From Allobosea sp. (lineage in GTDB: Bacteria; Pseudomonadota; Alphaproteobacteria; Rhizobiales; Beijerinckiaceae), in the NCBI RefSeq assembly GCF_017308075.1, contig NZ_JAFKFX010000051.1, forward strand, positions 1 to 50,095: a stretch of DNA of 50,095 bases, written 5' to 3'. The translations under genes were made by a program, and so were the position numbers. Below the pieces are notes generated by a model, which did no database searches, was not told the DNA's origin, and saw only the letters and a list, made by a program, of their open reading frames with translations. Positions 7,434-25,870 of the stretch are shown here, in pieces; the first letter of the stretch is position 1, and each line of letters opens with the position of its first letter.

Positions 7434-8234
7434 TCAACGAAATCGACAGCGCCGGTCGCTATATCTCAGCCTTTCCACCGCATCGCGATGATCCTGCGTG
7501 TCGTGAGCCAGCGCCTGCATGGGCGCTGCCATGTCCAGCACGGTATCGAGCCGCGCGGCGCAGGACGACCTGAGCAGGCGCTTGGTCATGCGCACGGCGT
7601 GGCGCGGATTTGTGGCGATGCGGCGGGCAAGTGCCTTGGCCGCCGGCAGGAGTTCCTCCGGCTCGGTGACGGCCGAGACCAGGCCGATGGCGAGCGCCTC
7701 GGCGGCCTCGACCGGGTCGCCGGTCAGGGCCATTTCGCAGGCCTTCGAGAAGCCGACGATGCGGGGCAGCAGCCAACTGCCGCCATCACCGGCGATCAGC
7801 CCGAGTTTGACGAAATTCTCGGCGAAGCGGGCATTGGTCGAGCCTATGCGCAGGTCGCACATCAAGGTCAGGTCGCAGCCGGCGCCCATGGCCGGCCCGT
7901 TCACCGCAGCGATCACCGGCACGTCCAGCGCCTCGAAAGCGAGCGGTAGCCTCTGGATGCCGTTTCGGTAATTGCGGCGGGTGTTCAGCGGGTCGGGATC
8001 GCGCAGGCCACTGCCGGAGCCCATCGCCCGCAGATTACCGCCGGAGGAGAAAGCGCTGCCCGCACCGGTGAGGATCGCGACGCGCACCGCGTCGTCGCGC
8101 TCGAGCCGCTGGAGCGCCGCCAGCAGCGCCTCAACGACATCCGCATCCGAGATCGCGTTACGCGTCTCCGGCCGGTTCAGCGTCAGCAGGCAGATGCCTT
8201 CGGGGTCGACGTCGTAGAGGACTGGTTCAGACAT
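7434..8234 (-). CDS. Enoyl-CoA hydratase/isomerase (crotonase fold)
   Basis: A 266-residue crotonase-family enzyme. LTLNRPETRNAISD (residues 17-30), the first oxyanion-hole segment SAFSSGGNLRAMG, and the second segment AVNGPAMGAGCDLTLMCDLR are intact; the position of the first catalytic Glu of hydratases falls in KLGLIAGDGG, which lacks it, so isomerase or another crotonase reaction is also possible. It binds acyl-CoA thioesters in the cytosol. It is the last gene of the leftward catabolic operon, 42 bases after the nitroreductase. The last residues (RLRYSDRRCRFR) are unlike the family and may be a shifted tail. Confidence 0.85.
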   Translation of the reverse strand: MSEPVLYDVDPEGICLLTLNRPETRNAISDADVVEALLAALQRLERDDAVRVAILTGAGSAFSSGGNLRAMGSGSGLRDPDPLNTRRNYRNGIQRLPLAFEALDVPVIAAVNGPAMGAGCDLTLMCDLRIGSTNARFAENFVKLGLIAGDGGSWLLPRIVGFSKACEMALTGDPVEAAEALAIGLVSAVTEPEELLPAAKALARRIATNPRHAVRMTKRLLRSSCAARLDTVLDMAAPMQALAHDTQDHRDAVERLRYSDRRCRFR

Positions 8235-8276
8235 CGTAGGTTCCGGGTTCGTGGAGACGGAGGGGCGAGGGACAGG

Positions 8277-8966
8277 CTACCAGGCGAAGGAGGCGAACTC
8301 GGACATCGCTGCCCGTTCGGTCCTCGCCGCAATGCAGGGATGGCTGGCATCCCGATAGCCGAGCGACATGCCGCAGAAGAGCGTCCGCCCGTCCGGCACG
8401 CCGAGGAAATCCCTCAGCGTCGCGTTCCAGCTGCCCCAGACCTGCTGCGGGCAGGTGTCGAGCCCCTCCTCGACCGCCAGCAGCATGAGCGATTGCAGGA
8501 ACATGCCGAGATCCGCCCATTGCGGCGGCCCGACCCGGGCGTCGAGATAGAAGAACAGCCCGACCGGCGCGCCAAAGAAGTCGAAATTCCGGCGCAGGAG
8601 TTCGGAGAGGCCGCTGCCGTCCTTGTCGGCGAAGCCGAAGGCCTCGTAACGCAGGCGCCCGGCTGCGGCGCGACGCGCCCGCAGCGGCTCCCAGAGCGGC
8701 GATGGGTAGGAGGCGAATTCGAGCGGCTCGCCCGCGGGGTCGCGCGCGAGCTTCTCGGCGATCAACCGCTTCAGCGCAACGAGGCGCTCGCCACCGACGG
8801 CATAGACGTGCCAGGGCTGGAGATTGCCGGTCGAGGGCGAACGGCGCGCACGATCGAGGATGTCTCGAACTTTGCCTTCGGCGACCGGCCGATCGCTGAA
8901 GGCCCGCACGGACATGCGGCGCTCGATCGCCTCCGACACCGTCACGGAGGTCGCCGGCTCAGCCAT
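8277..8966 (-). CDS. Nitroreductase-family FMN oxidoreductase
   Basis: A 229-residue nitroreductase-fold protein. The FMN phosphate site is RRMSVRAFSDRPV (residues 16-28), followed by RSPSTGNLQPWHVY, which contacts the isoalloxazine ring, and GLDTCPQQVWGSWN near residue 165. CGMSLGYRD near the C terminus is the usual closing motif. Length fits the short group. The ATG at 8966 overlaps the end of the acyl-CoA ligase gene by 8 bases, showing translational coupling. In this operon it may reduce an enoyl-CoA, quinone or unsaturated acid; the substrate cannot be read from the sequence. Confidence 0.85.
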   Translation of the reverse strand: MAEPATSVTVSEAIERRMSVRAFSDRPVAEGKVRDILDRARRSPSTGNLQPWHVYAVGGERLVALKRLIAEKLARDPAGEPLEFASYPSPLWEPLRARRAAAGRLRYEAFGFADKDGSGLSELLRRNFDFFGAPVGLFFYLDARVGPPQWADLGMFLQSLMLLAVEEGLDTCPQQVWGSWNATLRDFLGVPDGRTLFCGMSLGYRDASHPCIAARTERAAMSEFASFAW

Positions 8967-10533
8967 GGCCGGACTTCCCCGCATCGCCCCCGGCCGTCGC
9001 TTCCCTGTCGGCGACCAGCGTCCGCAGCTCGGTCTTGAGGATCTTGCCATAGGAGTTCTTTGGTAAGGCTTCGAAGAAGAGGTAGTGCTTCGGCCGCTTG
9101 AAGCGGGCGATGTGCTCATCGCAGAGCCGGTCGAGTTCGGTCCGATCGATCGTCGCGCGATTGCGCACGCTCACTGCGGCCACGACCTCCTCGCCCCAGT
9201 CGGCATGCCGGCGGCCGAGCACAGCGACCTCGGCGACATCCGGGTGGCGCAGCAGCACCTCCTCGACCTCGCGCGGGTAGATGTTGACGCCGCCGGAGAT
9301 GATGACGTCCTTCGAGCGATCCTTGAGCGTCAGCAGGCCGCCCTCGTCGAGCGAGCCGAGATCGCCGGTATGAAGCCAGCCATCGCGCAGCGCCGCCCCC
9401 GTGGCCTGCGGATTGTTCCAGTAGCCGCTCATCACGCTGTCGCCACGCACCAGCACCTCGCCGACCGCGCCGGTGGGGAGCGACTGGCCGTCTTCGCCGG
9501 CTATGCGCAGTGACACGATCGCCTGCGCATAGCCGACCGAGCCGAGCCGGTGGTCGAGCTGCCCGTCGCCGGGGTCGGCGTGCAGGCTGCGTGGCAGGAC
9601 GGTGATCGTCATCGGGCTCTCGCCCTGGCCGTAGATCTGGACGAGGCGCTGGCCGAAGACCTCCAGCGCCCGCCGGCTGTCCTCGACATACATCGGGCCG
9701 CCGCCATAGATGATCGTCTTCAGGCCGCGTCGTTCGGCATCGCCGATCACGCCGGCATTCATCAGCCGTGTCACGATGGTCGGCGCCGCGAAGAAGGCGC
9801 AGCCGCGATGGGCCCGCAGCAGCGCGGCGAGTTCCACCGGGTCGAAGCGCCCGCTTTCCGGCACGACCTGCGCCGCCATCGCCGCGACATGCGGAATGGC
9901 GTAGATGCCCGAGCCATGCGAGAGCGGCGCCGGATGCAGGATGCAGTCTCCCGGCGCGACATGATCGACTTCCGAAAGGTAGCCGCTGGTCATCGCCATC
10001 AGGTTGCGATGGGAGAGCACGGCTCCCTTCGAGCGCCCGGTCGTGCCGCTGGTATAGAATAGCCAGGCTGGGTCGCCGGCCTCGACCTCCCGCTGCGCCG
10101 CTTCGTCGAAGCCGGCGAGTTCGCTCGCCTCGATCTCGTCGGCCGGCAGCACCAGAGGCACCCGCTGCTGCATGAAGCCGAGCGCGTCCGCGACCGTCGC
10201 CGAAAGGTCGGCCGTGACGAAGACCAGGCTGGCGCCGGAATCGTCGAGGATATGGGCGATCTCGCGGGCATGCAGCTTGGCATTGACCGGTACGGTGACC
10301 AGCCCGGCGCGCCAGCAGGCGAACAGCAAGGCGAGATAGGCCGGGCAGTTGCGCATCACCAGCGCGACACGGTCGCCGGGCCCGAGGCCATGGCGCGCGA
10401 CCAGGCCGGCGGCGATCCGCGCCGAGTGCGAGGCCAGCTCACGATAGCGCCAGACCGGCCGCTCGCCCTCGAAGACGGCGACCCGGTCGGGCCGGACCTT
10501 TGCGGCGCGGATGAGGAGCGAGGCGATGTTCAT
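8959..10533 (-). CDS. AMP-forming acyl-CoA synthetase (ligase)
   Basis: A 524-residue ANL-superfamily enzyme that activates a carboxylate to its CoA thioester through an acyl-adenylate. The P-loop-like motif is YTSGTTGRSKGA (160-171), the ATP motif IYGQGESPMT lies near 315, TGDLGSLDEGG and DRSKDVIISGGVNIYPREVE form the hinge, and the catalytic lysine is K497 in NSYGKILK. It is the medium/long-chain or feruloyl-type group. The gene starts 3 bases after the livF stop and overlaps the nitroreductase, so it is tightly coupled to the importer, suggesting it activates the imported acid. Confidence 0.9.
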   Translation of the reverse strand: MNIASLLIRAAKVRPDRVAVFEGERPVWRYRELASHSARIAAGLVARHGLGPGDRVALVMRNCPAYLALLFACWRAGLVTVPVNAKLHAREIAHILDDSGASLVFVTADLSATVADALGFMQQRVPLVLPADEIEASELAGFDEAAQREVEAGDPAWLFYTSGTTGRSKGAVLSHRNLMAMTSGYLSEVDHVAPGDCILHPAPLSHGSGIYAIPHVAAMAAQVVPESGRFDPVELAALLRAHRGCAFFAAPTIVTRLMNAGVIGDAERRGLKTIIYGGGPMYVEDSRRALEVFGQRLVQIYGQGESPMTITVLPRSLHADPGDGQLDHRLGSVGYAQAIVSLRIAGEDGQSLPTGAVGEVLVRGDSVMSGYWNNPQATGAALRDGWLHTGDLGSLDEGGLLTLKDRSKDVIISGGVNIYPREVEEVLLRHPDVAEVAVLGRRHADWGEEVVAAVSVRNRATIDRTELDRLCDEHIARFKRPKHYLFFEALPKNSYGKILKTELRTLVADREATAGGDAGKSGHG

Positions 10534-10536
10534 TGG

Positions 10537-11243
<707 letters not shown>

Positions 11244-11247
<4 letters not shown>

Positions 11248-11975
11248 GACACGGCACTCCCGAGATAGGCTTCCTGCACCCGGGCATCGGCCAGCACCGC
11301 GCGGGTGGTGCCACTCGCCAGCATCTCGCCGAAATTGAGCACGATGGCGTTGCCGCAGAGCTGGCTGATGATCGGTACGGAATGCTCCACCATGAGGATG
11401 GTGACGCCCTCTGCATTGATGCGCCGGATCTGGTCGCACAGGGCGGCAGCTTCCGTCGCCGTGAGCCCGGCAAGCATCTCGTCGAGCAGCAGAAGCCGTG
11501 GCTCCGTGGCGATGGCGCGCGCGATCTCGAGGCGGCGCATCTCGGCGACGCTGAGCCGCTCGGCATCGAGATCGGCGAGGTGATCCATGCCGATCCGCCT
11601 CAACGCCAGATGCGCGTGATGCTCGGCGTCAGCGGAGGCCGGATGTCGGCCGAAGGCGGCGACCTTGACGTTCTCCAGAACGCTCATCCCCTGGAAGGGC
11701 CGCACGATCTGGAAGGTCCGGGCGAGGCCGAGCCGGCAAATATCATGCGGGCGCATGCCGTCGATCCGCCGGCCGTCGAGATGCACGGCGCCGGAGGAGA
11801 GCGGGAGCAGGCCGGACAGGCAGTTGAACAGCGTGGTCTTGCCCGCTCCGTTCGGCCCGATGATGCCGAAGATCTCGCCCGGCATCACCTCGAAGCTGAC
11901 ATCCGATACCGCCTTGAGGCCGCCGAACGACTTGCCGAGCCCGGTGACCGCGAGCAGAGGCTGCTGTGTGCTCAC
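11244..11975 (-). CDS. livG: Branched-chain-amino-acid-type ABC importer ATPase LivG
   Basis: A 243-residue ATPase. Walker A GPNGAGKTT (40-48), the LivG-type insert (RTFQIVRPFQGMSVLENV), Walker B RLLLLDEMLAGL and H-loop ILMVEHSVP. The signature reads LSVAEMR (141-147) rather than LSGGQ; relatives in LivG-like sets often have degenerate signatures, but the Gly-Gly pair is missing here. It overlaps livM by 4 bases and livF by 4, so all three are translated together. Confidence 0.9.
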
Positions 11976-12982
11976 TGTGCAGCCTCCATGGCGAGAGCCT
12001 TGGCATCTGCGGCCGGCTTCTCCGGCGCCCGTCGCCGCAGGCGCGCCGCCAGCACACCGCCGAGGCCCTGCGGCAGCAGCAGCGCCAGCACGATCAGCAA
12101 CAGCGCATAGGCGACGATGTTGACGCCGTGGAAACCGGAGCCGAGATAGTTCCGCAACAATTCGCCGGCCGGGATCAGCAAGGCGGCGCCGAGCAGCGGG
12201 CCCCAGAGCAGCCCGAGGCCGCCGATGATGCCGAAGACGAGGAGCTGGATCGAGAGTTCCACGCCCAGCGTCGAGCGCGGATCGACGAAGGCGAAGGTAT
12301 TGGCGAAGATCGCACCACCGATCGCGGTCACGACGGCGCTGAGTGCGAAAACCAGCAGCTTGTAGCGCATGGCCGGCACGCCGAGAGCTTCCGCCGCGCC
12401 CTCATTGTCGCGCAGCGCACGCCAGTAATAGCCCGGCCGCGCCGTGAGCACGGCCTGCGAAATGAAGAGCGTCAGCGCCAGGAAGCCGACGATGATCAGG
12501 CCATAGGGCCATTTATGGTCGAACTGCAGATAACGCAGTGCGTCCGGGGACGAGGGCAGCATCATGCCGTCGGAGCGGCCGAGCCAGAGCGTCGCCGAGA
12601 CGAGCAGGAAGGCGACCTCGCTGAAGGCGAGGGTCGCGATCGAGAAGAAATAGCCGCGCAGGCCATAGCGGAAGCAGAGCAGGCCGATGAAGAGCGCGCT
12701 CGCCAGCGCCAGCAGGGCGGCGATCGGCCAGGTCGCGAGCGGACCCAGCCCGAAGCCGACCTGTCCGTAGGCGACGGTGTAGGCGCCGATGCCGAAGAAC
12801 AGCGAGTGGCCGAGCGAGACCAGGCCGGTAAAGCCCGCCATCAGGTTCCAGGCGACGGCAACGGTGCCGATCAGCCCAACCATGATGAAGATCTCCATGA
12901 AATACGGATCGCTGAGGCTGGCGCAGAACGCCGCGATGGCGAGCAGGGTCGGCACCAGAGCGGGAAGGAAGCGACGAAGCAT
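11972..12982 (-). CDS. livM: Liv-type ABC importer permease LivM
   Basis: A 336-residue inner-membrane permease with about ten hydrophobic segments. The family hallmark GFTGLVSLGHSLFFGIGAYT is at about residues 51-70, followed by YFFSIATLAFSEV and the EAA-like loop GGAIFANTFAFVDP. It ends in a short basic and Ala-rich tail. It shares one base with the livH stop codon and 4 bases with livG. Together with LivH it forms the channel. Confidence 0.9.
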   Translation of the reverse strand: MLRRFLPALVPTLLAIAAFCASLSDPYFMEIFIMVGLIGTVAVAWNLMAGFTGLVSLGHSLFFGIGAYTVAYGQVGFGLGPLATWPIAALLALASALFIGLLCFRYGLRGYFFSIATLAFSEVAFLLVSATLWLGRSDGMMLPSSPDALRYLQFDHKWPYGLIIVGFLALTLFISQAVLTARPGYYWRALRDNEGAAEALGVPAMRYKLLVFALSAVVTAIGGAIFANTFAFVDPRSTLGVELSIQLLVFGIIGGLGLLWGPLLGAALLIPAGELLRNYLGSGFHGVNIVAYALLLIVLALLLPQGLGGVLAARLRRRAPEKPAADAKALAMEAAQ

Positions 12983-13857: not shown

Positions 13858-13917
13858 GCGACTCCTCGCGCGGCGCGCCTCCGCCATTGCCGGCGAAGGC
13901 GCGGCTGGGCGTAATGA

Positions 13918-15138: not shown

Positions 15139-15207
15139 GATTGCGTTCCCTCTCTCGTGAATGCGGCGGCGGGTTCTGCTGCCCGCCGCTCGGTTCGGAT
15201 CTTCAGC

Positions 15208-16260
15208 TCATGGACACAGCACGGCGCGACCGACGAAGCGGCCCTCGCGCAGTCCGAGCAGCGCGTCATTGGCGGCTTCGAGCGGCAGCCGGGTGACCGG
15301 GATCGGCGCGATCTTGCCCTCGCGTGCAAGCGCGACGAGCTCGCGCAGTTCGGCGAGGTTGCCGACCAGGCTGCCCTGGATACGGGCTGCCTTCATCGGG
15401 ATCAGCGGCAGCGACCAGGGCGCGGTTCCGCCGAAGAGCCCGACGATGACGAGCGTGCCGCCCTTGGCCAGGGCATCGAAGCCGAGCGCGGCCGACTTCT
15501 CGTTGCCGACGAGGTCCACGGCCGATTGAGCGGGACCGCCGATCGCCGCTGCGATCTGCGCGAGCGCATCGGGAGCGGCGCCGTCGATCGCGGCGAGAGC
15601 CCCGGCCTCCAGGGCCGAGGCCCGCTTGGCCGGATCGAGATCGACGAGCACGGCGCCCACGCCGCCAAGCGCGCGCAGGATCTGGATGCACATCAGCCCC
15701 AGCCCGCCGGCGCCGATGACCAGGACCGGCTGGCGCGTGATCTGATCGCCGAGCTTCTTCAGGGCGCTATAGGTCGTCACGCCCGAGCAGGCGAGAGGGG
15801 CGACCTGTGCCGGATCGAGATCGCCGATCGGCAGGAGATAGCGCGCATCCGGCACGCGCAGATATTCGGCATAGCCGCCGTCGCGATGGACGCCGAGATA
15901 GCCCGCCTTGGCGCAATAGTTCTCGAACCCGTCCCGGCAGGTCTGGCATTGGCCGCAACCGATCCAGGGATAGGCGAGGCAGCGCTCGCCGATGCCGACC
16001 CCCTCGACCTCTGGCCCGAGCGCAACCACCTCGCCGACGGTCTCGTGCCCCATCGTGATCGGCAGGGCGACGCCGCGATCCTTGAGCGAAAGCTTGCGGC
16101 CGGCGCCGAGGTCGTAACCGCCTTCCCAGAGATGAATGTCGCTATGGCAGACGCCGGCCGCCTTGACCTTGATCACCACCTCGCGACCGACCGGGACCGG
16201 CTGCGGCTTCTCCGCCGCCGCCAGCGGCGCGCCGAATTCCTCGATGCAGAAAAAGCGCAT
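15208..16260 (-). CDS. Zinc-dependent alcohol dehydrogenase (MDR family)
   Basis: A 350-residue medium-chain dehydrogenase. Catalytic zinc ligands are C38 (CHSDIHLWEGG), H72-E73 (MGHETVGEV) and a Cys near 152 (PLACSGVTTYSAL). The structural zinc site is complete, with cysteines at 102, 105, 108 and 116. The NAD-binding motif VIGAGGLGL lies near 177 and VLVDLDP ends the second strand with Asp, indicating NAD preference. It oxidises a primary or secondary alcohol to an aldehyde or ketone, fitting with the aldehyde dehydrogenase gene of the same operon. Confidence 0.9.
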   Translation of the reverse strand: MRFFCIEEFGAPLAAAEKPQPVPVGREVVIKVKAAGVCHSDIHLWEGGYDLGAGRKLSLKDRGVALPITMGHETVGEVVALGPEVEGVGIGERCLAYPWIGCGQCQTCRDGFENYCAKAGYLGVHRDGGYAEYLRVPDARYLLPIGDLDPAQVAPLACSGVTTYSALKKLGDQITRQPVLVIGAGGLGLMCIQILRALGGVGAVLVDLDPAKRASALEAGALAAIDGAAPDALAQIAAAIGGPAQSAVDLVGNEKSAALGFDALAKGGTLVIVGLFGGTAPWSLPLIPMKAARIQGSLVGNLAELRELVALAREGKIAPIPVTRLPLEAANDALLGLREGRFVGRAVLCP

Positions 16261-16281
16261 GGCCGGCTCCGTTCCCTTCTT

Positions 16282-17052
16282 TCAGCGCGCCGTGAAGCCG
16301 CCATCGACCGGCAGAGCGACGCCGGTGACGAAGGAGGCATCGTCAGAGGCGAGCCAGAGCGCCGCATGGGCGATCTCTTCGGGACGACAGAGCCGTCCGA
16401 GCGGCACGGCTGCGAGCAGCTTCTTCTCGTTAGCTGCGGCTTCCGCGAGATCGCCGGAGCGGCTGGTGAAATTGGTCGCCATCGGCGTATCGGTCAGCCC
16501 GGGACAGATCACGTTCACGCGGACCTTGTCGGGCGCGAAGGTCTGGGCGAGCGATTTGGTCAGACCGACCACCGCGAATTTGCCGGCTGAATAAACCGGA
16601 CTGAACATCGAGCCAACCAGCCCCGAGACCGAGGCTGTGAAGATCAGCGAGCCGCCGCCGCGCTTGCGCATATGCTTGATGACCTCGCCCGCGGCCAGGG
16701 CGGCCGAGTCGACATTCAGCGCCATTGCGCGGCCATAGGCGGCAAGGTCGAGATCCTCGATGCCGGCCGGCCCGGGAATGCCGGCATGGGCCCACATCAC
16801 GTCGATGCCGCCCAGGCGCGCCGCCGCTTCGTGGACGGAACTGCGCATGACTTCCTGGCGCGAAAGATCGGCCTGCAGCGTCTCGACGCTCTGCCCTCGC
16901 CCCCTCGCCTCTTCGGCGAGCTTTGCCAAAGCCGCCGCGTTGACGTCGATGGCGAGCACCTTCGCGCCTTCGCGCAGGAAGAGCTCGACGCCCGCCTTCC
17001 CCATTCCCGACGCCGCCGCCGTGACGACGGCGAGCTTCCCAGCCAGACGCAT
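16282..17052 (-). CDS. Short-chain dehydrogenase/reductase
   Basis: A 256-residue classical SDR. TAAASGMG (11-18) is the glycine-rich cofactor loop, D37 after VLAID suggests NAD, N113 and S141/S143 with Y154 and K158 (YSAGK) form the active site. The usual NNAG motif reads AHAG (89-91 region), a variation seen in some SDRs. PGLTDTPMATNFTSR and the C-terminal VALPVDGGFTAR are typical. It would oxidise a hydroxyl group of the pathway intermediate, perhaps a 3-hydroxyacyl-CoA; substrate is not predictable. It lies between the aldehyde and alcohol dehydrogenase genes with gaps near 20 bases. Confidence 0.9.
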   Translation of the reverse strand: MRLAGKLAVVTAAASGMGKAGVELFLREGAKVLAIDVNAAALAKLAEEARGRGQSVETLQADLSRQEVMRSSVHEAAARLGGIDVMWAHAGIPGPAGIEDLDLAAYGRAMALNVDSAALAAGEVIKHMRKRGGGSLIFTASVSGLVGSMFSPVYSAGKFAVVGLTKSLAQTFAPDKVRVNVICPGLTDTPMATNFTSRSGDLAEAAANEKKLLAAVPLGRLCRPEEIAHAALWLASDDASFVTGVALPVDGGFTAR

Positions 17053-17072
17053 GTTCGTTTCCTCCGCAGATC

Positions 17073-18593
17073 TTATTGAGCGTAGGCGTCGGGAAACTGC
17101 CCGGTTGTGCTGACGACGGTCGTCCGCGTTTCCAGGTAGTTGTCGAGCGCTTCGAGCCCGTTCTCGCGCCCCCAGCCGCTCGCCTTGAAGCCGCCATAGG
17201 GCGTCGACCAGCGGATATAGCGGTAGGTATTGACCCAGACGATGCCGGCCTGGATCCGGGCGGAGACGCGGTGGGCGCGGCCGATGTCGCGGGTCCAGAG
17301 GCCGGCCGTCAGGCCATAGGTCGTATCATTGGCGATCGCGATCGCCTCATCCTCGCCGGAGAAGGGGATCAGCGAGGCGACCGGCCCGAAGATCTCCTCG
17401 CGGGCGATCCGCATGTCGTTGGCGACATTGGCGAAGACGGTCGGTTCCACGTAGAAGCCCTCGGCCAGCGCGCCATCCTCCAGCCGGCGCCCGCCGGCGA
17501 CCAGCGCGGCCCCTTCGGAGCGACCGATGTCGATATAGGACAGGGTCTTGGCGAGTTGCTCGGCATGGGCCTGCGGGCCCATATGCGTCGCCTCGTCGAG
17601 CGGGCGGCCGACACGAACCTTGCGCGCACGCTCCGAGAAGGCCTCGACGACGCGGTCGTAGATCGGCCGCTCGACCAGCACGCGTGAGCCGAGCGCGCAG
17701 CTCTGGCCGCAGACCGCCCAGGCCGAAGAGGTCGCGGCGTTGATCGCCTGGTCGATATCGGCGTCGGCGAAGATGATGTGCGGTGCCTTGCCGCCGAGCT
17801 CGAAGGAGAAGCGCTTCAGATTGTCGGCACCGGCGCGCAGGATCGCTTTGGCGGTGCGGCCCTCGCCGGTGAAGGCGATCTTGTCGACACCGGGATGGGC
17901 GACGAGATGGGCGCCGGTGTCATGGCCATAGCCGGGCACGACATTGAACACGCCTGGCGGAAAACCCGCCTTCTCGATCAGGCGGGCCAGCTCGAGCGCC
18001 GTCACCGGCGTCTGCTCGGCCGGCTTGAGCACGACAGTGCAGCCCGCGGCGAGTGCCGGAGCGACTTTCCAGACCGTCGTCAGCATCGGCGCGTTCCACG
18101 GCGTGATCGCACCGACGACACCGACCGGCAGGCGTGTCGTGAAGCAGTGGACGGAGTCGTCGATCGGGATCGTCCGCCCGGAGATCTTGTCGGCCAGCGA
18201 CGCGAACCACTGGAACCAGTGATGATGCGCGCCGAGATCGTTGCGCGATTCACGAATCGCACGGCCGGAATCGCGCGTCTCGAGGATCGCCATCTCGGGC
18301 GCCGCCTCGCGATAGAGATCCGCCAGGCGTCGCAGCAGGGCGGCGCGCTCCCAGCCCGGCATCCGCCGCCACGGCCCTTCGAATGCGGCGCGCGCTGCGA
18401 CGACCGCCCGGTCGATGTCACGCGGCCCACCGAAGGCGACGCGCGCCCAGGGCTTTCCGTTGGACGGGTCAATGCTGTCGACGATGCCGCCATCGAGGGG
18501 AGCGACCCATTCGCCGCCGATGAAGAGACGCTCGTATCGGCGCAGCTCCGACCCGGATTCCGGGGTGGGCTGCCTGAACGCTGTCGCCATCAT
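17073..18593 (-). CDS. NAD(P)-dependent aldehyde dehydrogenase
   Basis: A 506-residue ALDH-superfamily enzyme that oxidises an aldehyde to a carboxylic acid. Landmarks in order: RLFIGGEWVAPLDGG, ITPWNAPM, VLKPAEQTPVTALELA, the catalytic Glu in FELGGKAPHI, catalytic Cys in VCGQSCALGSRV, GFYVEPTVFANV and the terminal YGGFKASGWGRENG. The first gene of the leftward operon. The start is one of two adjacent ATGs (18593 or 18590) after a GGAG ribosome binding site; a frame open to 18635 is not preceded by a site. It probably acts after the alcohol dehydrogenase and before the acyl-CoA ligase. Confidence 0.9.
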   Translation of the reverse strand: MMATAFRQPTPESGSELRRYERLFIGGEWVAPLDGGIVDSIDPSNGKPWARVAFGGPRDIDRAVVAARAAFEGPWRRMPGWERAALLRRLADLYREAAPEMAILETRDSGRAIRESRNDLGAHHHWFQWFASLADKISGRTIPIDDSVHCFTTRLPVGVVGAITPWNAPMLTTVWKVAPALAAGCTVVLKPAEQTPVTALELARLIEKAGFPPGVFNVVPGYGHDTGAHLVAHPGVDKIAFTGEGRTAKAILRAGADNLKRFSFELGGKAPHIIFADADIDQAINAATSSAWAVCGQSCALGSRVLVERPIYDRVVEAFSERARKVRVGRPLDEATHMGPQAHAEQLAKTLSYIDIGRSEGAALVAGGRRLEDGALAEGFYVEPTVFANVANDMRIAREEIFGPVASLIPFSGEDEAIAIANDTTYGLTAGLWTRDIGRAHRVSARIQAGIVWVNTYRYIRWSTPYGGFKASGWGRENGLEALDNYLETRTTVVSTTGQFPDAYAQ

Positions 18594-18889
18594 CCGCTCC
18601 AACCTGCTTCTTGGATGGACAACTTGTACACGCACATGAATTTTTTCGTCAAGCCCGAAACCAACCAGCGGTGCAGAAATCGAAAATCGACAAGCCTATG
18701 TAATATCAGCACTTATTATCAAATCACGGCTAGTCAAACTCTGTCGCATCGCACAAAATTCTTGCTGCACTGCCGCGCATAATTGTCTCGCTCTGGCCAA
18801 GATTGGCTATTTCCGAGACAAATAATTCCTGTATATGAACATTCAACGCGCCACATGAACCCGGCGCGCGAAATGGGACGGGAGCCGAG
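18594..18889. promoter_or_regulatory. Divergent promoter region of the catabolic island
   Basis: A 296-bp AT-richer stretch between the leftward aldehyde dehydrogenase and the rightward CoA-transferase genes, with no coding frame. It must hold both operon promoters. It includes the spaced inverted repeat described next, an AT-rich TGTATATG segment (18830-18837) that could be the rightward -10, and TTGTACACGCACATGAA (about 18624-18640) close to the leftward start. Confidence 0.7.
18783..18821. promoter_or_regulatory. Spaced inverted repeat TTGTCTCG-N23-CGAGACAA
   Basis: Perfect 8-bp arms at 18783-18790 and 18814-18821, centres 31 bases apart (about three helical turns), 69-107 bases upstream of the rightward start. 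Geometry fits a dimer-of-dimers regulator or looping. The only regulator gene in the island is the IclR-type gene at 25112, the natural candidate; this is inference. Confidence 0.5.
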
Positions 18890-20128: not shown

Positions 20129-21295
20129 ATGGACTTCAGACTGACCGACGAGCAGGAGGCGATCCGCGATGCGATCTCCGGCATCTGCAAGCGCTTCGGG
20201 GATGACTACTGGCTGAAGCGCGATCGCGAGGGCGGTTTCCCGAACGATTTCTACGCCGCCTTCGCCGATGCCGGCTGGCTCGGCATCTGCATCCCCGAAG
20301 CCTATGGCGGCTCGGGGCTTGGGATCACCGAGGCGGCGATCATGATGCGCACCATCGCCGAATCCGGGGCCGGAATGTCCGGCGCCTCGTGCCTGCACAT
20401 CAATATCTTCGGCCTCAATCCCGTTCTGGTCCACGGCACCGAGGAGCAGAAGCAGCGGATGCTGCCGCCGATGGTTCAGGGGCGCGAAAAGGCCTGCTTC
20501 GCCGTCACGGAGCCGAACACCGGGCTCAACACGACGCAGCTCAAGACGCGCGCTGTCAGGAAGGGCGACGGCTATGTCGTCGACGGCCAGAAGGTCTGGA
20601 TCTCGACGGCCCAGGTCGCCGACAAGATCCTGCTCTTGGCACGCACGACGCCGCTGGAGGAGGTGACCAAGCCGACCCATGGGCTCAGCCTGTTCTACAC
20701 CGATTTCGATCGCTCGCGGATCAAGGTCCACGAGATCGAGAAGATGGGGCGCAAGATCGTCGACTCGAACGAGCTCTTCATCGAAGGGCTGGAAATCCCG
20801 GTCGAGGACCGGATCGGCGAGGAAGGCCGCGGCTTCGAGTACATCCTGCATGGCATGAACCCGGAGCGTGTGCTGATCGCGGCCGAAGCCGTCGGGCTCG
20901 GCCGGCTCGCGCTCGCCCGCGCCACCGCCTATGCCAAGGAGCGCATCGTCTTCAACCGGCCGATCGGGCAGAACCAGGCGATCCAGCATCCGCTAGCGCA
21001 GAATTGGATGGAGCTTGAGGCGGCCTGGCTGATGATCATGCGCGCCGCCTGGGAATATGACAGCGGCCTGCCCTGCGGCGCCAGCGCCAATGCCGCGAAG
21101 TACCTTGCGGGCGAAGCCGGCTTCAATGCCTGCCAGCAGGCGGTCATGACCCATGGCGGCTATGGCTATGCCAAGGAATTCCATGTCGAGCGCTATCTGC
21201 GCGAGGTGATGATTCCGCGGATCGCCCCGATCAGCCCGCAGCTCGTGCTCTGCTTCATCGCGGAGAAGGTGCTCGGCCTGCCCAAATCCTACTGA
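20129..21295 (+). CDS. Acyl-CoA dehydrogenase
   Basis: A 388-residue FAD flavoenzyme with the N-terminal helical (1-115), middle beta (CFAVTEPNTGLNTTQLKTRA, about 127-146) and C-terminal helical domains. NERVLIAAEAVGLG-type (here NPERVLIAAEAVG), HGGYGYAKEFHVERYLRE and the terminal GLPKSY are conserved in a subgroup where the active-site Glu lies in the last domain. It introduces a 2,3 double bond into an acyl-CoA and passes electrons to ETF. Its ATG follows the CoA-transferase stop with no gap. In the itaconate-like scheme it could form an unsaturated dicarboxyl-CoA. Confidence 0.9.
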   Translation: MDFRLTDEQEAIRDAISGICKRFGDDYWLKRDREGGFPNDFYAAFADAGWLGICIPEAYGGSGLGITEAAIMMRTIAESGAGMSGASCLHINIFGLNPVLVHGTEEQKQRMLPPMVQGREKACFAVTEPNTGLNTTQLKTRAVRKGDGYVVDGQKVWISTAQVADKILLLARTTPLEEVTKPTHGLSLFYTDFDRSRIKVHEIEKMGRKIVDSNELFIEGLEIPVEDRIGEEGRGFEYILHGMNPERVLIAAEAVGLGRLALARATAYAKERIVFNRPIGQNQAIQHPLAQNWMELEAAWLMIMRAAWEYDSGLPCGASANAAKYLAGEAGFNACQQAVMTHGGYGYAKEFHVERYLREVMIPRIAPISPQLVLCFIAEKVLGLPKSY

Positions 21296-21301
21296 GTGAT
21301 C

Positions 21302-22555
21302 ATGCGGACTCTCGATCCAGCGGCACCCGACCTTTCGGCCTTCATCCGGCCGGGAGATCGGGTGCTGTGCGCGCAGACCTGCGCCGAACCGTCCTTGCTG
21401 GCAGCGGCGCTGCCGGCTGCCCATGCCGCTGTCGGACCGTTCGAAACCTTCGTCGGCACGGTCGTCTCGACCAGCTTCGACCATGCGCCGGAGACGATGG
21501 CGTTCGCCGGCTATGGCGCCATGGGGCGCGCGGCCCGCCTGGCGCGCCGGGGCCAACTCGATGTCTGGCCGCTGCATTACAGCGCGCTCGAGGCGGGCTT
21601 CGCCTCCGGTGCGATCCGCGCCGACGTCGTGCTGCTCCAACTGGCCCAGGGACCGGGTGGCTACTGCGCGACGCTCGCCAATGATTACGTGCTGGCGGCG
21701 GCGCGCCATGCCCGCTGCGTGATCGCGCAGGTCAATGCGCGCGCGCCCTGGTGTGTAGGCGCCGAGCTGGATCCGGAGCTGCGCATCGATGCCGCAGTGG
21801 AAACGGAAACCGACCTAGTAGAGGCTGCCTCGGCGCCCTCGGGCGAAACCGAGGCGGCGATCGCCCGCTATGTCGCCGGGCTCGTCCCGGACGGCGCCAC
21901 GATCCAGATCGGTGTCGGCGCGCTGCCCGACGCGGTGCTCGACGCGCTCGAAGGCCATCGCGATCTCGGTATCCATTCCGGCGTTCTCGCCGACCGGATG
22001 GCCGGGCTGATCGCGCGCGGCGTCGTCACCAACGCCCGCAAGACGCTGGAGCCGGGCATCAGCGTCGGCAATCTCGTCATCGCCACGCAGCGGCTCTTCA
22101 ACATGATCGACGGCAATCCGGCCTTCGCGCTCCGGCCGGCCGCGCATACCCACGCCATCGGCACGCTCGCCCGTCAGGAGCGCCTCGTCACGATCAATTC
22201 GGGGATCGAGGTCGACCTGCTCGGGCAGGTCAATGCCGAGCGCGCCGACGGCCAGCCCGTCGGCGGCACCGGCGGCCTCGTCGATTTCACCCGCGGTGCG
22301 CAGCTTGCGCCGAACGGGCGCGCCATTCTCGTCCTTCGCGCCACCGATCGCAGCGGCGAACGCTCGCGGATCGTGCCGCGGGTCCAGGCGGTGACGATCG
22401 GCCGGGCCGATGTCGATACGGTCGTGACCGAATACGGCGTCGCCGAACTCGCGCATCTGGGCGCAGCGGAGCGCGTGCGGGCGCTGATCGCGATCGCCGC
22501 GCCGCAGCACCGCGAAATGCTCGAGCGCGCCCTGCGCGAGGGAGGGGCGTCGTGA
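21302..22555 (+). CDS. Acetyl-CoA hydrolase / CoA-transferase, Cat family
   Basis: A 417-residue family I (Cat1/4-hydroxybutyrate CoA-transferase-like) protein with both halves: an N-terminal Rossmann part ([18 protein letters not shown]) and a C-terminal part with [31 protein letters not shown] and GGTGGLVDF. The segment that usually holds the catalytic Glu (LGIHTEM.SDG) reads [12 protein letters not shown], so the Glu is absent; relatives with HSG exist but their mechanism is less certain. The start is ATG 21302 or GTG 21296, just after the previous stop. Overlaps the next gene by 4 bases (GTGA). Confidence 0.8.
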
Positions 22556-23745: not shown

Positions 23746-23764
23746 ATCCAAAGGAAAAACGCCC

Positions 23765-24223
23765 ATGGCCGGACGCTATTATGAGGAATTCGAGGAGGGT
23801 CAGCTCTTCGAGCATGCCTTCTCGCGCACCGTCACCGAGCAGGACAATATCGGTTTCAGCCTGATGACGCTGAACCCGCAACCACTCCATGTCGACGCGG
23901 ATTTCTCGGCCAAGACCGAATGGGGCCAGCCGCTGTTCAACAGCCTCTACACGCTCGGGATCATGATCGGCATGAGCGTCTACGATACCACGCTCGGCAC
24001 CACCGTCGGCAATCTCGGCATGAGCGATGTGCGCTTCCCGAAGCCGGTCTTCCATGGCGACACCCTGCGCTCGCGCACCAAGGTCGTCGGCAAGCGCATC
24101 AGCAAGTCGCGTCCCTCGGTCGGGCTCGTCGAGTTCGAGCATGAATGCCTCAACCAGCACGGCGAGGTGGTGGCGATCTGCCGGCGTATGGCGATGATCC
24201 ACCGCAGCAAGGAGGCCGCCTGA
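23765..24223 (+). CDS. MaoC-like hot-dog hydratase
   Basis: A 152-residue single hot-dog hydratase. RTVTEQDNIGFSLMTLNPQ and PLHVDADFSAKTEWGQPL hold the Asn/His region of the active site of MaoC-type hydratases, and GDTLRSRTKVVGKRISKSRP is the conserved second half. The form with EQDN and NPQPLH is seen in itaconyl-CoA or mesaconyl-CoA hydratases that work with a CitE-like lyase. It hydrates an enoyl-CoA to a (hydroxy)acyl-CoA. One base overlap (TGATG) with the lyase gene shows coupling and supports a shared substrate. Confidence 0.85.
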   Translation: MAGRYYEEFEEGQLFEHAFSRTVTEQDNIGFSLMTLNPQPLHVDADFSAKTEWGQPLFNSLYTLGIMIGMSVYDTTLGTTVGNLGMSDVRFPKPVFHGDTLRSRTKVVGKRISKSRPSVGLVEFEHECLNQHGEVVAICRRMAMIHRSKEAA

Positions 24224-25083
24224 TGCGCAGCCTCCTGTTCGTACCCGGCGACAGCGCGCGCAAATTCACCCGCGCCTGCGAAAGTGCAGCCGATGCGCTG
24301 ATCCTCGACCTCGAGGATTCCGTCGCCGCCGAGGCCAAGGAAACAGCGCGCCGCGAGACCGGCACGATGCTGCAGGCGCCACGCGGGCGCCAGAAGCTCT
24401 TCGTCCGCGCCAACGCCTTCGACACCGGGCTCGCGGCGGCCGACCTCGCGGCGGTGATGCCGCATGCGCCGGATGGCATCGCCCTGCCGAAATGCGACGG
24501 TCCCGACCAGGTCAGGAGGCTCGGGCATATGCTCGACGCTTTCGAAGCCGCCCATGGCCTGGCGGCCGGGAGCACGCAGATCCTCGCCATCGTCACGGAG
24601 ACGGCCGGCTCGCTCTTCGGTCTCGGCTCCTATCGCGACTGCAGCCCGCGGCTCTGGGGCATGATGTGGGGAGCGGAAGATCTGGCCGCCTCCTTGGGCG
24701 CCACGACAAACCGTGAGGGCGGGGCGCTGTTGTCACCCTACCGCCTGGCACGTGATCTCTGCCTCGCCGGGGCGGCGGCGGCCGGGGTGGTCGCGGTGGA
24801 CACGGTCGCAACCACGATCGACGACCTCGACGCCGTGGCGCAGGAGGCGCGCGCCGCGCGCCGCGACGGCTTCCTGGCGAAGGGGATCATCCATCCCAAA
24901 CACGCCGAACTGGTCAACGCCGCCTTCCGGCCCAGCGAGGACGAGATCGCCTGGGCACAGCGCATCGCGCAGGCGTTTGGCAGTGGCGCCAATCTCGGCG
25001 TAATGAAAATCGACGGTCAGATGATCGATAAACCGCATCTCACGGCGGCCGAGCGTATTCTCGCCTCGCTGGGCACCGGCTGA
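24223..25083 (+). CDS. CoA-ester lyase, HpcH/HpaI (CitE-like) family
   Basis: A 286-residue TIM-barrel lyase of the CitE/malyl-CoA lyase family. RSLLFVPGDSARKF starts the barrel, LILDLEDSVA has the conserved Asp/Glu pair, E127-region VTETAGSLFGL and D-region WGAEDLAASLGA give the Mg ligands, and FLAKGIIHPKHAELV binds CoA. It cleaves or forms a C-C bond next to a hydroxyacyl-CoA (citramalyl-CoA, malyl-CoA, methylmalyl-CoA). ATG at 24223 overlaps the MaoC stop; a longer upstream frame is antisense-free but unrelated. As the last catabolic gene, it releases acetyl- or propionyl-CoA and an oxo-acid. Confidence 0.85.
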   Translation: MRSLLFVPGDSARKFTRACESAADALILDLEDSVAAEAKETARRETGTMLQAPRGRQKLFVRANAFDTGLAAADLAAVMPHAPDGIALPKCDGPDQVRRLGHMLDAFEAAHGLAAGSTQILAIVTETAGSLFGLGSYRDCSPRLWGMMWGAEDLAASLGATTNREGGALLSPYRLARDLCLAGAAAAGVVAVDTVATTIDDLDAVAQEARAARRDGFLAKGIIHPKHAELVNAAFRPSEDEIAWAQRIAQAFGSGANLGVMKIDGQMIDKPHLTAAERILASLGTG

Positions 25084-25111
25084 TCGGCACAGGGATTCGA
25101 CAAGGAAGCGC

Positions 25112-25870
25112 ATGCAGGTCAAGCAGGCCGCCAACGTTCTCGAACTGCTCGAGTTCTTCGCCCGCCGGCAGAAGCCGGCGACCCTCGCCGAGCTCTCAGA
25201 CGAGCTCGGCTGGCCGCGTTCCAGCACCTTCAACCTGATCGGTACGCTGGCGGATAAAGGCTATCTCTACGAGCCGCGCGCGCGGGGCGGCTACTATCCG
25301 AGCCCGCGCTGGCTCGCCATGGCGCAGGCCGTCGCGAGCGCCGAGCCGCTGCCCGAGGCTGTGCTGCAGCTCGTCGCCGAAGTCGCGCGGGAAACCGGAG
25401 AGACGACGGCGATCGGCGCCCCGTCCGGCACGCATGCAGTCTTCATCTACGTCATCGAATCCGAGGCGCCGATCCGCTATTTCGCGCAGGAAGGGCACCG
25501 CCTGCCGATCCAGGCAAGCTCGACCGGGCGCGCGATCCTGGCGCAATACTCGGTCGCGGAGCGCGATGCGCTTTATCGCAAAATCACCTTCGAGCGCTAC
25601 GCGCCGACGACGCCGAGTAATATCGACGCTGTCGAAGCGGAGCTGCGGCGCTCTTCGGTGCGCGGCTATCATTTCAGTGATGGCGACTACAGCCGCGATC
25701 TGGTCGGCATTGCCTGCCCTCTGCCACTTCCGGAAAGACGGCTTTCCATCGTCGTCGCCGGTCCGCAGTTCCGCTGCCTGCCGAGAGCGGAGGAAATTGC
25801 CGCGACGCTCAGAGCAGCCATCGAGCGCTTCCGGGGGGAGATAAATCCTGCGCCATCCGGTGGAGCCTAG
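25112..25870 (+). CDS. IclR-family transcriptional regulator
   Basis: A 252-residue IclR-type protein. The N-terminal winged helix reads AANVLELLEFFARRQKPATL and DELGWPRSSTFNLIGTLADK (residues 6-50); the ligand domain has ETTAIGAPSGTHAVFIYVIE, LPIQASSTGRAILAQ and a Cys-Pro-Leu segment (GIACPLPLPERRLS). Such proteins sense small organic acids or their CoA derivatives and act as repressors or activators. Start is ATG 25112, 28 bases after the lyase stop. Being last in the operon, it may regulate itself and bind the divergent region at 18.6-18.9 kb. Confidence 0.9.
   Translation: MQVKQAANVLELLEFFARRQKPATLAELSDELGWPRSSTFNLIGTLADKGYLYEPRARGGYYPSPRWLAMAQAVASAEPLPEAVLQLVAEVARETGETTAIGAPSGTHAVFIYVIESEAPIRYFAQEGHRLPIQASSTGRAILAQYSVAERDALYRKITFERYAPTTPSNIDAVEAELRRSSVRGYHFSDGDYSRDLVGIACPLPLPERRLSIVVAGPQFRCLPRAEEIAATLRAAIERFRGEINPAPSGGA

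What the first reader, a model, noticed from the sequence alone, without database searches (positions are those of the whole stretch)
7434..25870. 18-kb divergent CoA-dependent catabolic island with its own Liv-type importer and a racemase
Eighteen genes form two facing-away operons with overlaps or near-zero gaps. The set combines alcohol, aldehyde and SDR dehydrogenases, a complete Liv importer, an acyl-CoA ligase, nitroreductase and crotonase on one side, and two different CaiB-type proteins, an acyl-CoA dehydrogenase, a Cat-type transferase, a MaoC hydratase and a CitE-like lyase with an IclR regulator on the other. MaoC plus CitE plus CoA-transferase is the known core of itaconate and related C5 dicarboxylate breakdown; the AMACR-like gene argues for a 2-methyl-branched CoA intermediate. 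The addition of alcohol/aldehyde oxidation and a dedicated importer suggests a pathway for a branched alcohol, diol or methyl-branched acid that I cannot match to a described one.
Basis: partly seen in the sequence, partly recalled or inferred. Interest (0 to 1): 0.8.

Follow-up and report, generated by a model that had tools for sequence, protein, structure and literature searches.

The report
Mobile branched-diacid breakdown gene cluster
An 18-kb, horizontally shared set of bacterial genes most likely imports and breaks down a small methyl-branched diacid, or the alcohol or aldehyde it comes from; it resembles known itaconate and methylsuccinate pathways but uses a different set of enzymes, and its exact food molecule is still unknown.

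Summary
In detail: 18 tightly packed genes at 7434-25870 form two divergent operons (11 minus, 7 plus). Fifteen of them recur in the same order in Bosea thiooxidans and two Azospirillum species, yet only 5 of 61 Bosea genomes carry the racemase at 75% or more: an accessory island, probably spread between orders. But it is not the known itaconate cluster: the dehydrogenase lies next to, not inside, methylsuccinyl-C4-CoA dehydrogenase (46-48%); transferase and lyase are 29-36% to Ict and Ccl; the hydratase gives no BLAST match to pseudomonad Ich; and homologues of Ict, Mcd, Ich and Ccl lie elsewhere in the same genome. The importer varies (TRAP, Liv or both). SDR and ALDH occur only with Liv (SDR in 6 of 6 Liv loci, ALDH in 5; neither in 74 others), suggesting that Liv brings a precursor that is oxidised to the diacid. 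Substrate unresolved: methylsuccinate-like, methylglutarate-like or larger. New variant of a known kind.

The parts
7434..8234 (-). ECH: crotonase-family enoyl-CoA hydratase/isomerase (PRK09245 subfamily)
   Evidence: NF006699 363.5 bits, over cut-off 354; 71% to ECH of the B. thiooxidans cluster; 58-61% to ECH beside a CaiB1-ACAD pair in Cupriavidus oxalaticus and Variovorax
8277..8969 (-). NTR: nitroreductase-family FMN enzyme, role unknown
   Evidence: PF00881 99 bits; homologues in the Frigidibacter (41%) and A. oleiclasticum (33%) clusters
8959..10533 (-). ACS: AMP-forming acyl-CoA ligase
   Evidence: PF00501/PF13193; 45% or more in 22 of 80 related loci within the flanks; 80% beside LivF in B. 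thiooxidans
10537..11247 (-). LivF ATPase
   Evidence: PRK11614 LivF best model, below cut-off
11244..11975 (-). LivG ATPase
   Evidence: PRK11300 LivG best model, below cut-off
11972..12982 (-). LivM permease
   Evidence: PF02653
12982..13887 (-). LivH permease
   Evidence: PF02653
13918..15138 (-). LivK periplasmic binding protein
   Evidence: PF13458; model mean pLDDT 68, best structural match the L-pyroglutamate-bound SAR11_0655, then Leu/GABA/aromatic-acid binders
15208..16260 (-). ADH: zinc-dependent medium-chain alcohol dehydrogenase
   Evidence: PF08240/PF00107; in 4 of 80 loci, 3 of them with LivK
16282..17052 (-). SDR: short-chain dehydrogenase
   Evidence: PF13561; in exactly the 6 of 80 loci that have LivK
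17073..18593 (-). ALDH: aldehyde dehydrogenase, HpaE/BADH-like
   Evidence: PF00171 574 bits; TIGR02299 542 bits, below cut-off
18594..18889 (.). Divergent promoter region with two shared motifs: GTACACRNNNRTGAA at 18626-18640 and YCTGTATATGRA at 18828-18839
   Evidence: each once in the window, 0.00 expected in 100 shuffles. Outside the window YCTGTATATGRA is at 5 distinct places (L063, L064, L065=L043, L066, L067) and GTACACRNNNRTGAA at 5 (L063, L064, L065=L043, L066, L109) among 185 fetched loci; the first is absent from L068, L069 and L071
18890..20128 (+). CaiB1: class III CoA-transferase
   Evidence: PF02515 368 bits; best solved relative succinate-hydroxymethylglutarate CoA-transferase
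20129..21295 (+). ACAD: acyl-CoA dehydrogenase in a clade next to methylsuccinyl-C4-CoA dehydrogenase (Mcd)
   Evidence: 46-48% to four Mcd; 18-row clade 100/99 beside Mcd clade 100/100 inside a 24-row clade 100/100; Glu246 in an NPER motif and no YEGT-type glutamate, as in Mcd
21296..22555 (+). Cat: class I CoA-transferase of the 4-hydroxybutyrate CoA-transferase kind
   Evidence: PF13336; 3eh7 best at 220 bits; 3qli (listed as coenzyme A transferase; recalled to be Yersinia RipA) 181 bits
22552..23745 (+). CaiB2/AMACR: alpha-methylacyl-CoA racemase
   Evidence: MCR structures E about 1e-108; H126, D156, E241 of 1x74 conserved
23765..24223 (+). MaoC: single-domain (R)-type enoyl-CoA hydratase
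   Evidence: PF01575; 59% to the MaoC of a Tistrella cluster with acyl-CoA dehydrogenase and biotin-dependent carboxylase
24223..25083 (+). CitE-like beta-hydroxyacyl-CoA lyase
   Evidence: PF03328; R64, M133, G135, D138, V181 of Rv2498c aligned, E112 after a one-residue insertion
25112..25870 (+). IclR-family regulator
   Evidence: PcaR/PcaU and BhcR models, below cut-off

Best explanation
The island is a complete uptake-and-breakdown unit for a short methyl-branched dicarboxylic acid (most likely a 2-methylsuccinate-like C5 acid) and for the alcohol or aldehyde from which it is made. Liv imports the precursor. ADH, SDR and ALDH oxidise it to the diacid. ACS or the two CoA-transferases make the CoA ester. 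The AMACR-type racemase makes both enantiomers usable at the CoA level, the job that the free-acid isomerase Msi does in the known cluster. ACAD inserts the double bond, MaoC adds water to give a tertiary 3-hydroxyacyl-CoA, and the CitE-like lyase splits it into a short acyl-CoA (acetyl-CoA if citramalyl-type) and a keto acid. IclR controls both operons from the shared 0.3-kb region. Shown: gene content, order, family and residue conservation, spread, and homologues of the canonical genes elsewhere in the genome. Inferred: every reaction, the order of steps, the regulation and the substrate.
For: ACAD's nearest characterised relative among those compared is Mcd, with the same non-canonical catalytic layout. 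CitE has the Mg- and methyl-contact residues of Rv2498c, which cleaves (S)-citramalyl-CoA and (R)-HMG-CoA (PMC6689899, passages read). AMACR catalytic residues intact. CaiB1+ACAD+MaoC+CitE co-occur in 38 of 80 loci; TRAP DctM in 35 of 80, with CaiB1 in 31. SDR in 6 of 6 Liv loci and 0 of 74 others, ALDH in 5 of 6 and 0 of 74. Parallel: the genome's Ich-Mcd-Ict operon also sits divergently to its own Liv importer and an ALDH, conserved in 1 of 4 further Bosea loci checked. Same 15-gene order in Bosea and Azospirillum and one promoter motif shared between them in 6 of 9 distinct clusters compared.
Against: No substrate is demonstrated. Homologues of Ict, Mcd, Ich and Ccl exist in the same genome, so plain methylsuccinate or itaconate would be redundant. 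AMACR needs CoA on the carboxyl next to the methyl (C1 ester), whereas citramalyl-type cleavage needs the C4 ester, so an extra CoA shift must be assumed. Three CoA-activating enzymes, ECH and NTR are not explained. The catalytic layout of ACAD is shared by all 24 rows of its larger clade, in several gene contexts, so it is not specific for methylsuccinyl-CoA. MaoC and CitE are closer to leucine-type relatives than to itaconate enzymes. CaiB1-ACAD pairs occur without CitE in the stretches fetched from other bacteria. ADH is also in one locus without Liv (L109). ABC and TRAP systems in one locus can import the same compound (CouPSTU/TarPQM, PMC3610893, passages read).
Confidence: 0.4

Rival explanations
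1. The lyase step is of the HMG type: 3-methylglutarate (or mevalonate-derived HMG, or 3-methyl-1,5-pentanediol) goes through 3-methylglutaryl-, 3-methylglutaconyl- and HMG-CoA to acetyl-CoA and acetoacetate, which Cat re-activates.
For: MaoC/CitE are 59%/49% to the pair in a Tistrella cluster with acyl-CoA dehydrogenase and biotin carboxylase; a Sphingobium cluster annotated with isovaleryl-CoA dehydrogenase and methylcrotonyl-CoA carboxylase has a 54% MaoC, though no CitE in the stretch fetched. ACAD relatives (62-72%) lie with MaoC-CitE beside acetoacetate-CoA ligase (Azoarcus) or beta-keto-acid cleavage enzyme and a 34% Cat-like transferase (Diaphorobacter, Sphingopyxis). CaiB1's best solved relative is succinate-hydroxymethylglutarate CoA-transferase. 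Rv2498c itself is an (R)-HMG-CoA lyase (PMC6689899).
Against: AMACR has no obvious role on a beta-methyl substrate. The leucine- or acetoacetate-linked CitEs in my sample have Thr where the window type has Met; weak, because the HMG-cleaving Rv2498c also has Met. No acetoacetate ligase, SCOT or carboxylase among the 18 genes.
Confidence: 0.22
2. The substrate is a larger 2-substituted succinate or an aromatic/alicyclic acid; the minus operon handles uptake, activation and side-chain oxidation and the plus operon clears the branched diacid that remains.
For: In relatives ABC importer, TRAP importer, acyl-CoA ligase and crotonase stand together, resembling the coumarate locus cou/tar of Rhodopseudomonas palustris (PMC3610893, passages read). 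AMACR accepts bulky 2-substituents (recalled). Ltp-type thiolase, SDR or MaoC-N genes lie by CaiB1-ACAD in other genomes. The species name of A. oleiclasticum and the recorded source of Frigidibacter mobilis (oil-production water) hint at oil.
Against: No ring-attacking enzyme or thiolase among the 18 genes; the nearest characterised relative of ACAD is C5-specific; TRAP-only loci keep the core six without Liv, SDR and ALDH (L065, L068, L071).
Confidence: 0.18
3. [quoted passage not shown]
For: It is the simplest C5 scheme in which the AMACR substrate and the ACAD substrate are the same ester. MaoC has 63 bits to the mesaconyl-CoA hydratase model.
Against: CitE scores only 39 bits to the halobacterial malyl/beta-methylmalyl-CoA lyase model. 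The genome has a CitE homologue and a 353-aa MaoC-domain protein near each other on contig C42 (L164) that look like that pathway's own enzymes (inference). Mcd, the nearest characterised relative of ACAD, uses the C4 ester (PMC12290011, section 12 read).
Confidence: 0.08
4. The two operons are unrelated neighbours that happen to share a promoter region.
For: Relatives carry the plus operon with TRAP and without Liv, ADH, SDR and ALDH (L065, L068, L071); reorganised versions occur in Bradyrhizobium.
Against: The same divergent pairing of Liv-ADH-SDR-ALDH with the plus operon is in 5 genomes (window, B. thiooxidans, G229, two Azospirillum), a Liv-SDR version in L064 and a Liv-SDR-ALDH version in L069; in the uncultured Bradyrhizobium L107 ACS-Cat-AMACR-ALDH-SDR-Liv follow one another on one strand.
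Confidence: 0.07

Closest known systems
Pseudomonas aeruginosa / Cupriavidus necator itaconate-methylsuccinate cluster (ict, mcd, ich, ccl, msi; PMC12290011, PMC9875883)
   Same: Same logic: class III CoA-transferase, acyl-CoA dehydrogenase of the same larger clade, hydratase, CitE-like lyase, a TRAP importer in P. aeruginosa and in many relatives of the window cluster, and a device that makes both enantiomers usable
   Different: CaiB1 29-34%, ACAD 46-48%, CitE 32-36%, MaoC without a BLAST match to Ich; AMACR instead of MmgE/PrpD Msi; extra Cat, ACS, Liv, ADH/SDR/ALDH; IclR regulator; the genome has an Ich-Mcd-Ict operon as well
Yersinia-type ripABC itaconate cluster
   Same: Class I transferase + single-domain MaoC + CitE-like lyase
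   Different: RipB and RipC models far below cut-off; Cat is nearer to other 4-hydroxybutyrate CoA-transferases than to 3qli (recalled to be RipA; 220 vs 181 bits); the Y. [quoted passage not shown] absence of racemase and importer recalled
Leucine-type MaoC-CitE pair (Rv2498c kind; PMC6689899)
   Same: MaoC and CitE are closest in sequence to this kind among the references compared; CitE catalytic and methyl-contact residues conserved
   Different: No isovaleryl-CoA dehydrogenase or methylcrotonyl-CoA carboxylase recognised among the 18 genes; ACAD only 26% to the Tistrella dehydrogenase
R. palustris cou/tar coumarate locus (PMC3610893)
   Same: ABC importer beside acyl-CoA ligase and crotonase, with a TRAP importer too in B. 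thiooxidans
   Different: No branched-diacid module there (recalled); here racemase, ACAD, MaoC and lyase

Membership tests
P. aeruginosa-type itaconate/methylsuccinate cluster | Ict orthologue (45-70% among the four references) | tested here: not met
   CaiB1 29-34% to four Ict
P. aeruginosa-type itaconate/methylsuccinate cluster | Mcd orthologue (64-81% among the four references) | tested here: not met
   ACAD 46-48%; in a clade next to, not inside, Mcd
P. aeruginosa-type itaconate/methylsuccinate cluster | Ich of about 280 aa | tested here: not met
   MaoC is 152 aa with no BLAST match to the four Ich references at E 1e-5
P. aeruginosa-type itaconate/methylsuccinate cluster | Msi (MmgE/PrpD) | tested here: not met
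   none among the 18 genes; no match in the whole genome at E 1e-20 (without a positive control)
ripABC itaconate cluster | RipB/Ich and RipC/Ccl equivalog scores over cut-off | tested here: not met
   134 of 340 and 163 of 375 bits; the Ccl-type lyase of the Variovorax reference cluster also fails, 163 of 375
alpha-methylacyl-CoA racemase (AMACR/MCR) | Sequence family and His/Asp/Glu catalytic set | tested here: met
   E about 1e-108; H126, D156, E241 conserved; residue roles recalled
alpha-methylacyl-CoA racemase (AMACR/MCR) | Racemase activity | not testable with these tools
   no assay
Liv/HAAT ABC importer | LivK, H, M, G, F all present in one operon | tested here: met
Leucine-type MaoC-CitE catabolic cluster | Adjacent isovaleryl-CoA dehydrogenase and biotin-dependent carboxylase | tested here: not met
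   not recognised among the 18 genes
CitE-like (S)-citramalyl/(R)-HMG-CoA lyase | R64, E112, D138 and methyl pocket M133, G135, V181 of Rv2498c | tested here: met
   E112 needs a one-residue insertion, as printed for 3qll; numbering mapped by counting
Mcd-like acyl-CoA dehydrogenase | Activity on methylsuccinyl-C4-CoA | not testable with these tools
   only neighbouring-clade position and shared catalytic layout

The most novel reading that the evidence does not exclude
A third, independently assembled pathway for branched dicarboxylates, in which stereoisomers are equalised at the CoA level by an AMACR-type racemase and CoA is then moved to the other carboxyl by one of the two CoA-transferases before dehydrogenation and lyase cleavage; carried between alphaproteobacterial orders as one island and fed, through its Liv/ADH/SDR/ALDH half, by a natural branched alcohol, lactone or aldehyde not yet known as a bacterial carbon source.
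Probability: 0.25. Interest if true: 0.7.

Novelty: new variant of a known kind. Interest (0 to 1): 0.46.

Why it matters
Where methylsuccinate and related branched diacids come from in soil, and how both enantiomers are used, was opened only recently (PMC12290011, PMC9875883, parts read as listed in the report). This island adds a non-orthologous enzyme set, apparently with a different solution to the stereochemistry (racemase on the CoA ester instead of an isomerase on the free acid), and ties it to importers and oxidoreductases that point to upstream substrates. If right, it would widen the enzyme toolbox for itaconate- and methylsuccinate-type plastic monomers and give a marker for a carbon source shared by Bosea, Azospirillum and perhaps Bradyrhizobium.

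Tried and rejected
Family models alone: the six core plus-strand enzymes all score below equivalog cut-offs, so no name could be assigned from them. Canonical itaconate/methylsuccinate cluster: rejected as membership. Cupriavidus metallidurans as reference gave only a 37% CitE in unannotated DNA, so Variovorax, Mesorhizobium, P. aeruginosa and Comamonadaceae plasmid clusters were used. CitE alone is not a good marker: of the 7 genomes besides the window's own with CitE at 61-80% identity, the module was found in 2 (G189, G077), an AMACR-CitE remnant at a contig end in 1 (G127), and CitE without the module in 4 (G145, G154, G160, G180), two of these on contigs under 8 kb. The CitE of contig C2 (with its MaoC) has no leucine genes beside it, so it is called leucine-like only by sequence. 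AlphaFold of ACAD failed (mean pLDDT 36) and was not used. The LivK fold search is suggestive only: best hit an L-pyroglutamate binder, then many amino-acid and aromatic-acid binders. A third promoter motif, GCATCGCACMAA, was found only in the Bosea clusters (5 of 185 loci, one place counted twice and one the window itself). The dicarboxylate RB-TnSeq paper PMC12543098 holds no match for methylsuccin, methylglutar, methyladip, CaiB or racemase (term search). Hypotheses recalled but untested: tulipalin or 4-methyleneglutamate as natural precursors; one paper search that included the latter found no paper with the term among those listed. tRNA and Rfam scans were empty.

Full report
What is there. 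The window lies in a Bosea-like genome: genomes ranked as same genus have contigs with the lengths and gene places of the records of B. thiooxidans, Bosea sp. BH3 and the Rhizobiales isolate L065 (identification by me from lengths and positions). Between 7434 and 25870 there are 18 genes, 11 on the minus strand (ECH, nitroreductase, acyl-CoA ligase ACS, LivF, LivG, LivM, LivH, LivK, ADH, SDR, ALDH) and 7 on the plus strand (CaiB1, ACAD, Cat, a second CaiB-family protein, MaoC, CitE-like lyase, IclR). Within each operon genes overlap or nearly abut. In 2-kb steps the island has 65-69% G+C from 8 to 26 kb, against 62-64% to its left and 56-66% to its right. A fragment of an integrase core domain lies directly right of it (25898-26272, minus) and an AAA_25 protein to the left (3618-4817).

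Is the arrangement real. A scan of the species-genome collection with an ACAD alignment gave 374 relatives, of which the best 80 were kept; most are Bradyrhizobium, and flanks are 10 kb or less. LivF-G-M-H-K-ADH-SDR-ALDH // CaiB1-ACAD-Cat-AMACR-MaoC-CitE-IclR recurs in the same order in Bosea thiooxidans, Azospirillum oleiclasticum and A. agricola and in the unnamed Bosea G229. Counting at 45% identity and 60% coverage, of 80 loci: MaoC 66, CitE 70, CaiB1 43, IclR 41, Cat 38, DctM 35, ACS 22, AMACR 11, LivK 6, SDR 6, ALDH 5, ADH 4, ECH 0, NTR 0; all six core plus-strand enzymes in 8, CaiB1+ACAD+MaoC+CitE in 38, ACAD+MaoC+CitE in 64 (the Dct count is by clustering). ECH lies further out: it is in the same run in B. 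thiooxidans, where the order is ECH-DctM-Q-P-ACS-Liv, so the window's nitroreductase stands where B. thiooxidans has a TRAP importer. In A. agricola the ECH copy near the cluster lies in a neighbouring, different operon, and no ACS was seen beside LivF. ACAD is 90-91% identical between the window and Azospirillum, which belongs to another order (recalled), and only 5 of 61 Bosea genomes have the racemase at 75% or more (two more at 62 and 56%). Together with the borders this points to horizontal transfer; that is inference.

Regulation. The 0.3-kb divergent gap is AT-rich and mostly unalignable, but YCTGTATATGRA is present in 6 of 9 distinct clusters compared (window, L063, L064, L065, L066, L067; not L068, L069, L071), 49-72 bases before the CaiB1 start. 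It occurs once in the window with 0.00 expected and in 7 of 185 fetched loci, all of this cluster (L043 and L065 are one place, L166 is the window itself). GTACACRNNNRTGAA is found once in the window and in 6 of 185 loci (L043, L063, L064, L065, L066, L109), not in L067. They are candidate operators or promoter parts; function untested.

What the enzymes are. CaiB2 is an AMACR/MCR-type racemase by sequence, not a transferase: E about 1e-108 to MCR structures, with H126, D156 and E241 conserved (roles of these residues recalled). CaiB1 is a class III transferase nearest to succinate-hydroxymethylglutarate CoA-transferase among solved structures. Cat is a class I transferase of the 4-hydroxybutyrate CoA-transferase kind. 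The lyase keeps R64, D138 and the methyl-contact residues M133, G135 and V181 of Rv2498c, and E112 if a one-residue insertion is allowed, an enzyme shown to cleave (S)-citramalyl-CoA and (R)-HMG-CoA (PMC6689899, passages read). Seven leucine-like or acetoacetate-linked relatives in my sample carry Thr at the M133 position. ACAD lacks the usual YEGT-type glutamate and has Glu246 in an NPER motif, the position used by isovaleryl-CoA dehydrogenase (position recalled), and so does Mcd. In a 36-row tree ACAD falls in an 18-row clade (100/99) that also holds pairs from other gene contexts; the five Mcd form another clade (100/100); both lie in a 24-row clade (100/100) with one further Polaromonas enzyme whose place is unresolved, and the catalytic layout is shared across that clade.

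Not the known itaconate cluster. PMC12290011 (abstract, section 5 part 1, section 12, section 14 part 1 and passages read; [quoted passage not shown] PMC9875883 (passages read) shows that PA0878-0886, including a transporter, confers growth on itaconate, methylsuccinate, (S)-citramalate and mesaconate. Four reference clusters recognisable by the five-gene set were fetched: Variovorax, Mesorhizobium, a P. aeruginosa plasmid, a Comamonadaceae plasmid. Against them CaiB1 is 29-34%, ACAD 46-48%, CitE 32-36%, and MaoC has no match. The window's own genome has Ich-Mcd-Ict homologues on contig C4 (Mcd 82%, Ict 48% to Mesorhizobium; Ich 48% to Variovorax) and an Ich-like (44%) plus Ccl-type pair on contig C60; Msi was not found (without a positive control). 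In the genus, 41 of 61 genomes have Mcd at 83% or more and 7 more at 65-67%; all five racemase carriers are among these 48, G189 at 66%. So the island adds something to a genus that mostly already carries Mcd. Against this: of four further Bosea loci checked, Mcd stood without Ict and Ich in two (L193, L196) and with Ich but no Ict match in a third (L194).

What it probably does. The recurring backbone is transferase, dehydrogenase, hydratase, lyase, accompanied by TRAP importers in 35 of 80 loci. SDR is in exactly the 6 loci with LivK and in none of the other 74; ALDH in 5 of those 6 and none of the other 74; ADH in 3 of the 6 and 1 of the 74. B. thiooxidans, Bosea BH3, G229 and one Bradyrhizobium have both importers. 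The simplest reading is that TRAP takes up the diacid and Liv a precursor that SDR, ALDH and ADH oxidise. A parallel supports it: the genome's Ich-Mcd-Ict operon is divergent from a second, complete Liv importer with an ALDH, an arrangement conserved in G248 but not in the three other Bosea loci checked. Against it: R. palustris uses ABC and TRAP importers for the same coumarate (PMC3610893, passages read). The end reaction is open: pyruvate + acetyl-CoA (C5, C4 ester), acetoacetate + acetyl-CoA (C6) or glyoxylate + propionyl-CoA (C5, C1 ester). The racemase fits the C1 ester, an Mcd-like ACAD the C4 ester; an intramolecular CoA transfer of the ThnP kind (PMC11659651, search listing only) would reconcile them. 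ECH, NTR and the number of CoA-activating enzymes are unexplained.

Novelty. No described cluster with this enzyme set came up in six paper searches, which cover open-licence papers only and were read as listings except for the papers named above. I rate it a new variant of a known kind: same chemistry class, different enzymes and apparently a different stereochemical solution, unknown substrate.

Noticed in passing
L180 7045-17134 (contig C4 of the window's genome): An Ich-Mcd-Ict operon is divergent from a second complete Liv importer and an ALDH; conserved in G248 (L195), not in L193, L194 or L196.
   Followed up: partly
L160 1-2114 and L157 3318-5973: TPP-dependent decarboxylase-like subunits and an aldehyde dehydrogenase flank the P. 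aeruginosa-type itaconate/methylsuccinate clusters of Mesorhizobium and Variovorax (ALDH piece 65% alike): a possible upstream route from a branched 2-oxo diacid to methylsuccinate.
   Followed up: no
L058 1-3224 (contig C60): A 3.2-kb contig with an Ich-like and a Ccl-like gene and, near its end, several tandem copies of a short repeat containing CTGGACCGCGATCTCTGAAACGCTAATCT, followed by what may be the start of a transposase gene.
   Followed up: no
window 25898-26272: Integrase core (rve_3) fragment immediately right of the island.
   Followed up: no
window 3618-4817: AAA_25-domain protein left of the island; few long ORFs with coding-like base composition lie in 1-7 kb.
   Followed up: no
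L184 4934-14435: Rhodococcus opacus plasmid cluster with MaoC (55%), acyl-CoA ligase, ACAD (49%), AMACR-like CaiB (45%), ECH, ALDH (41%) and a CitE-like lyase (34%): a possible actinobacterial analogue.
   Followed up: partly
L150 8774-12488; L147 8753-12444: CaiB1-ACAD pairs with a MaoC-N hydratase and an ECH 58-61% to the window's ECH but no CitE in the stretch; the Variovorax record has this as well as a canonical cluster.
   Followed up: partly
window 42794-43786 and 32834-34447: Urea transporter (UT family), and a cytochrome/quinol oxidase subunit I gene beside XdhC/CoxI-family and LysR genes, downstream of the island.
   Followed up: no
L163 8990-10311 (contig C2): A MaoC-CitE pair (59%/49% to the window's) with no leucine-pathway genes recognised beside it; CitE relatives at E 1e-40 or better were found in 116 of 199 genomes of the family.
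   Followed up: partly
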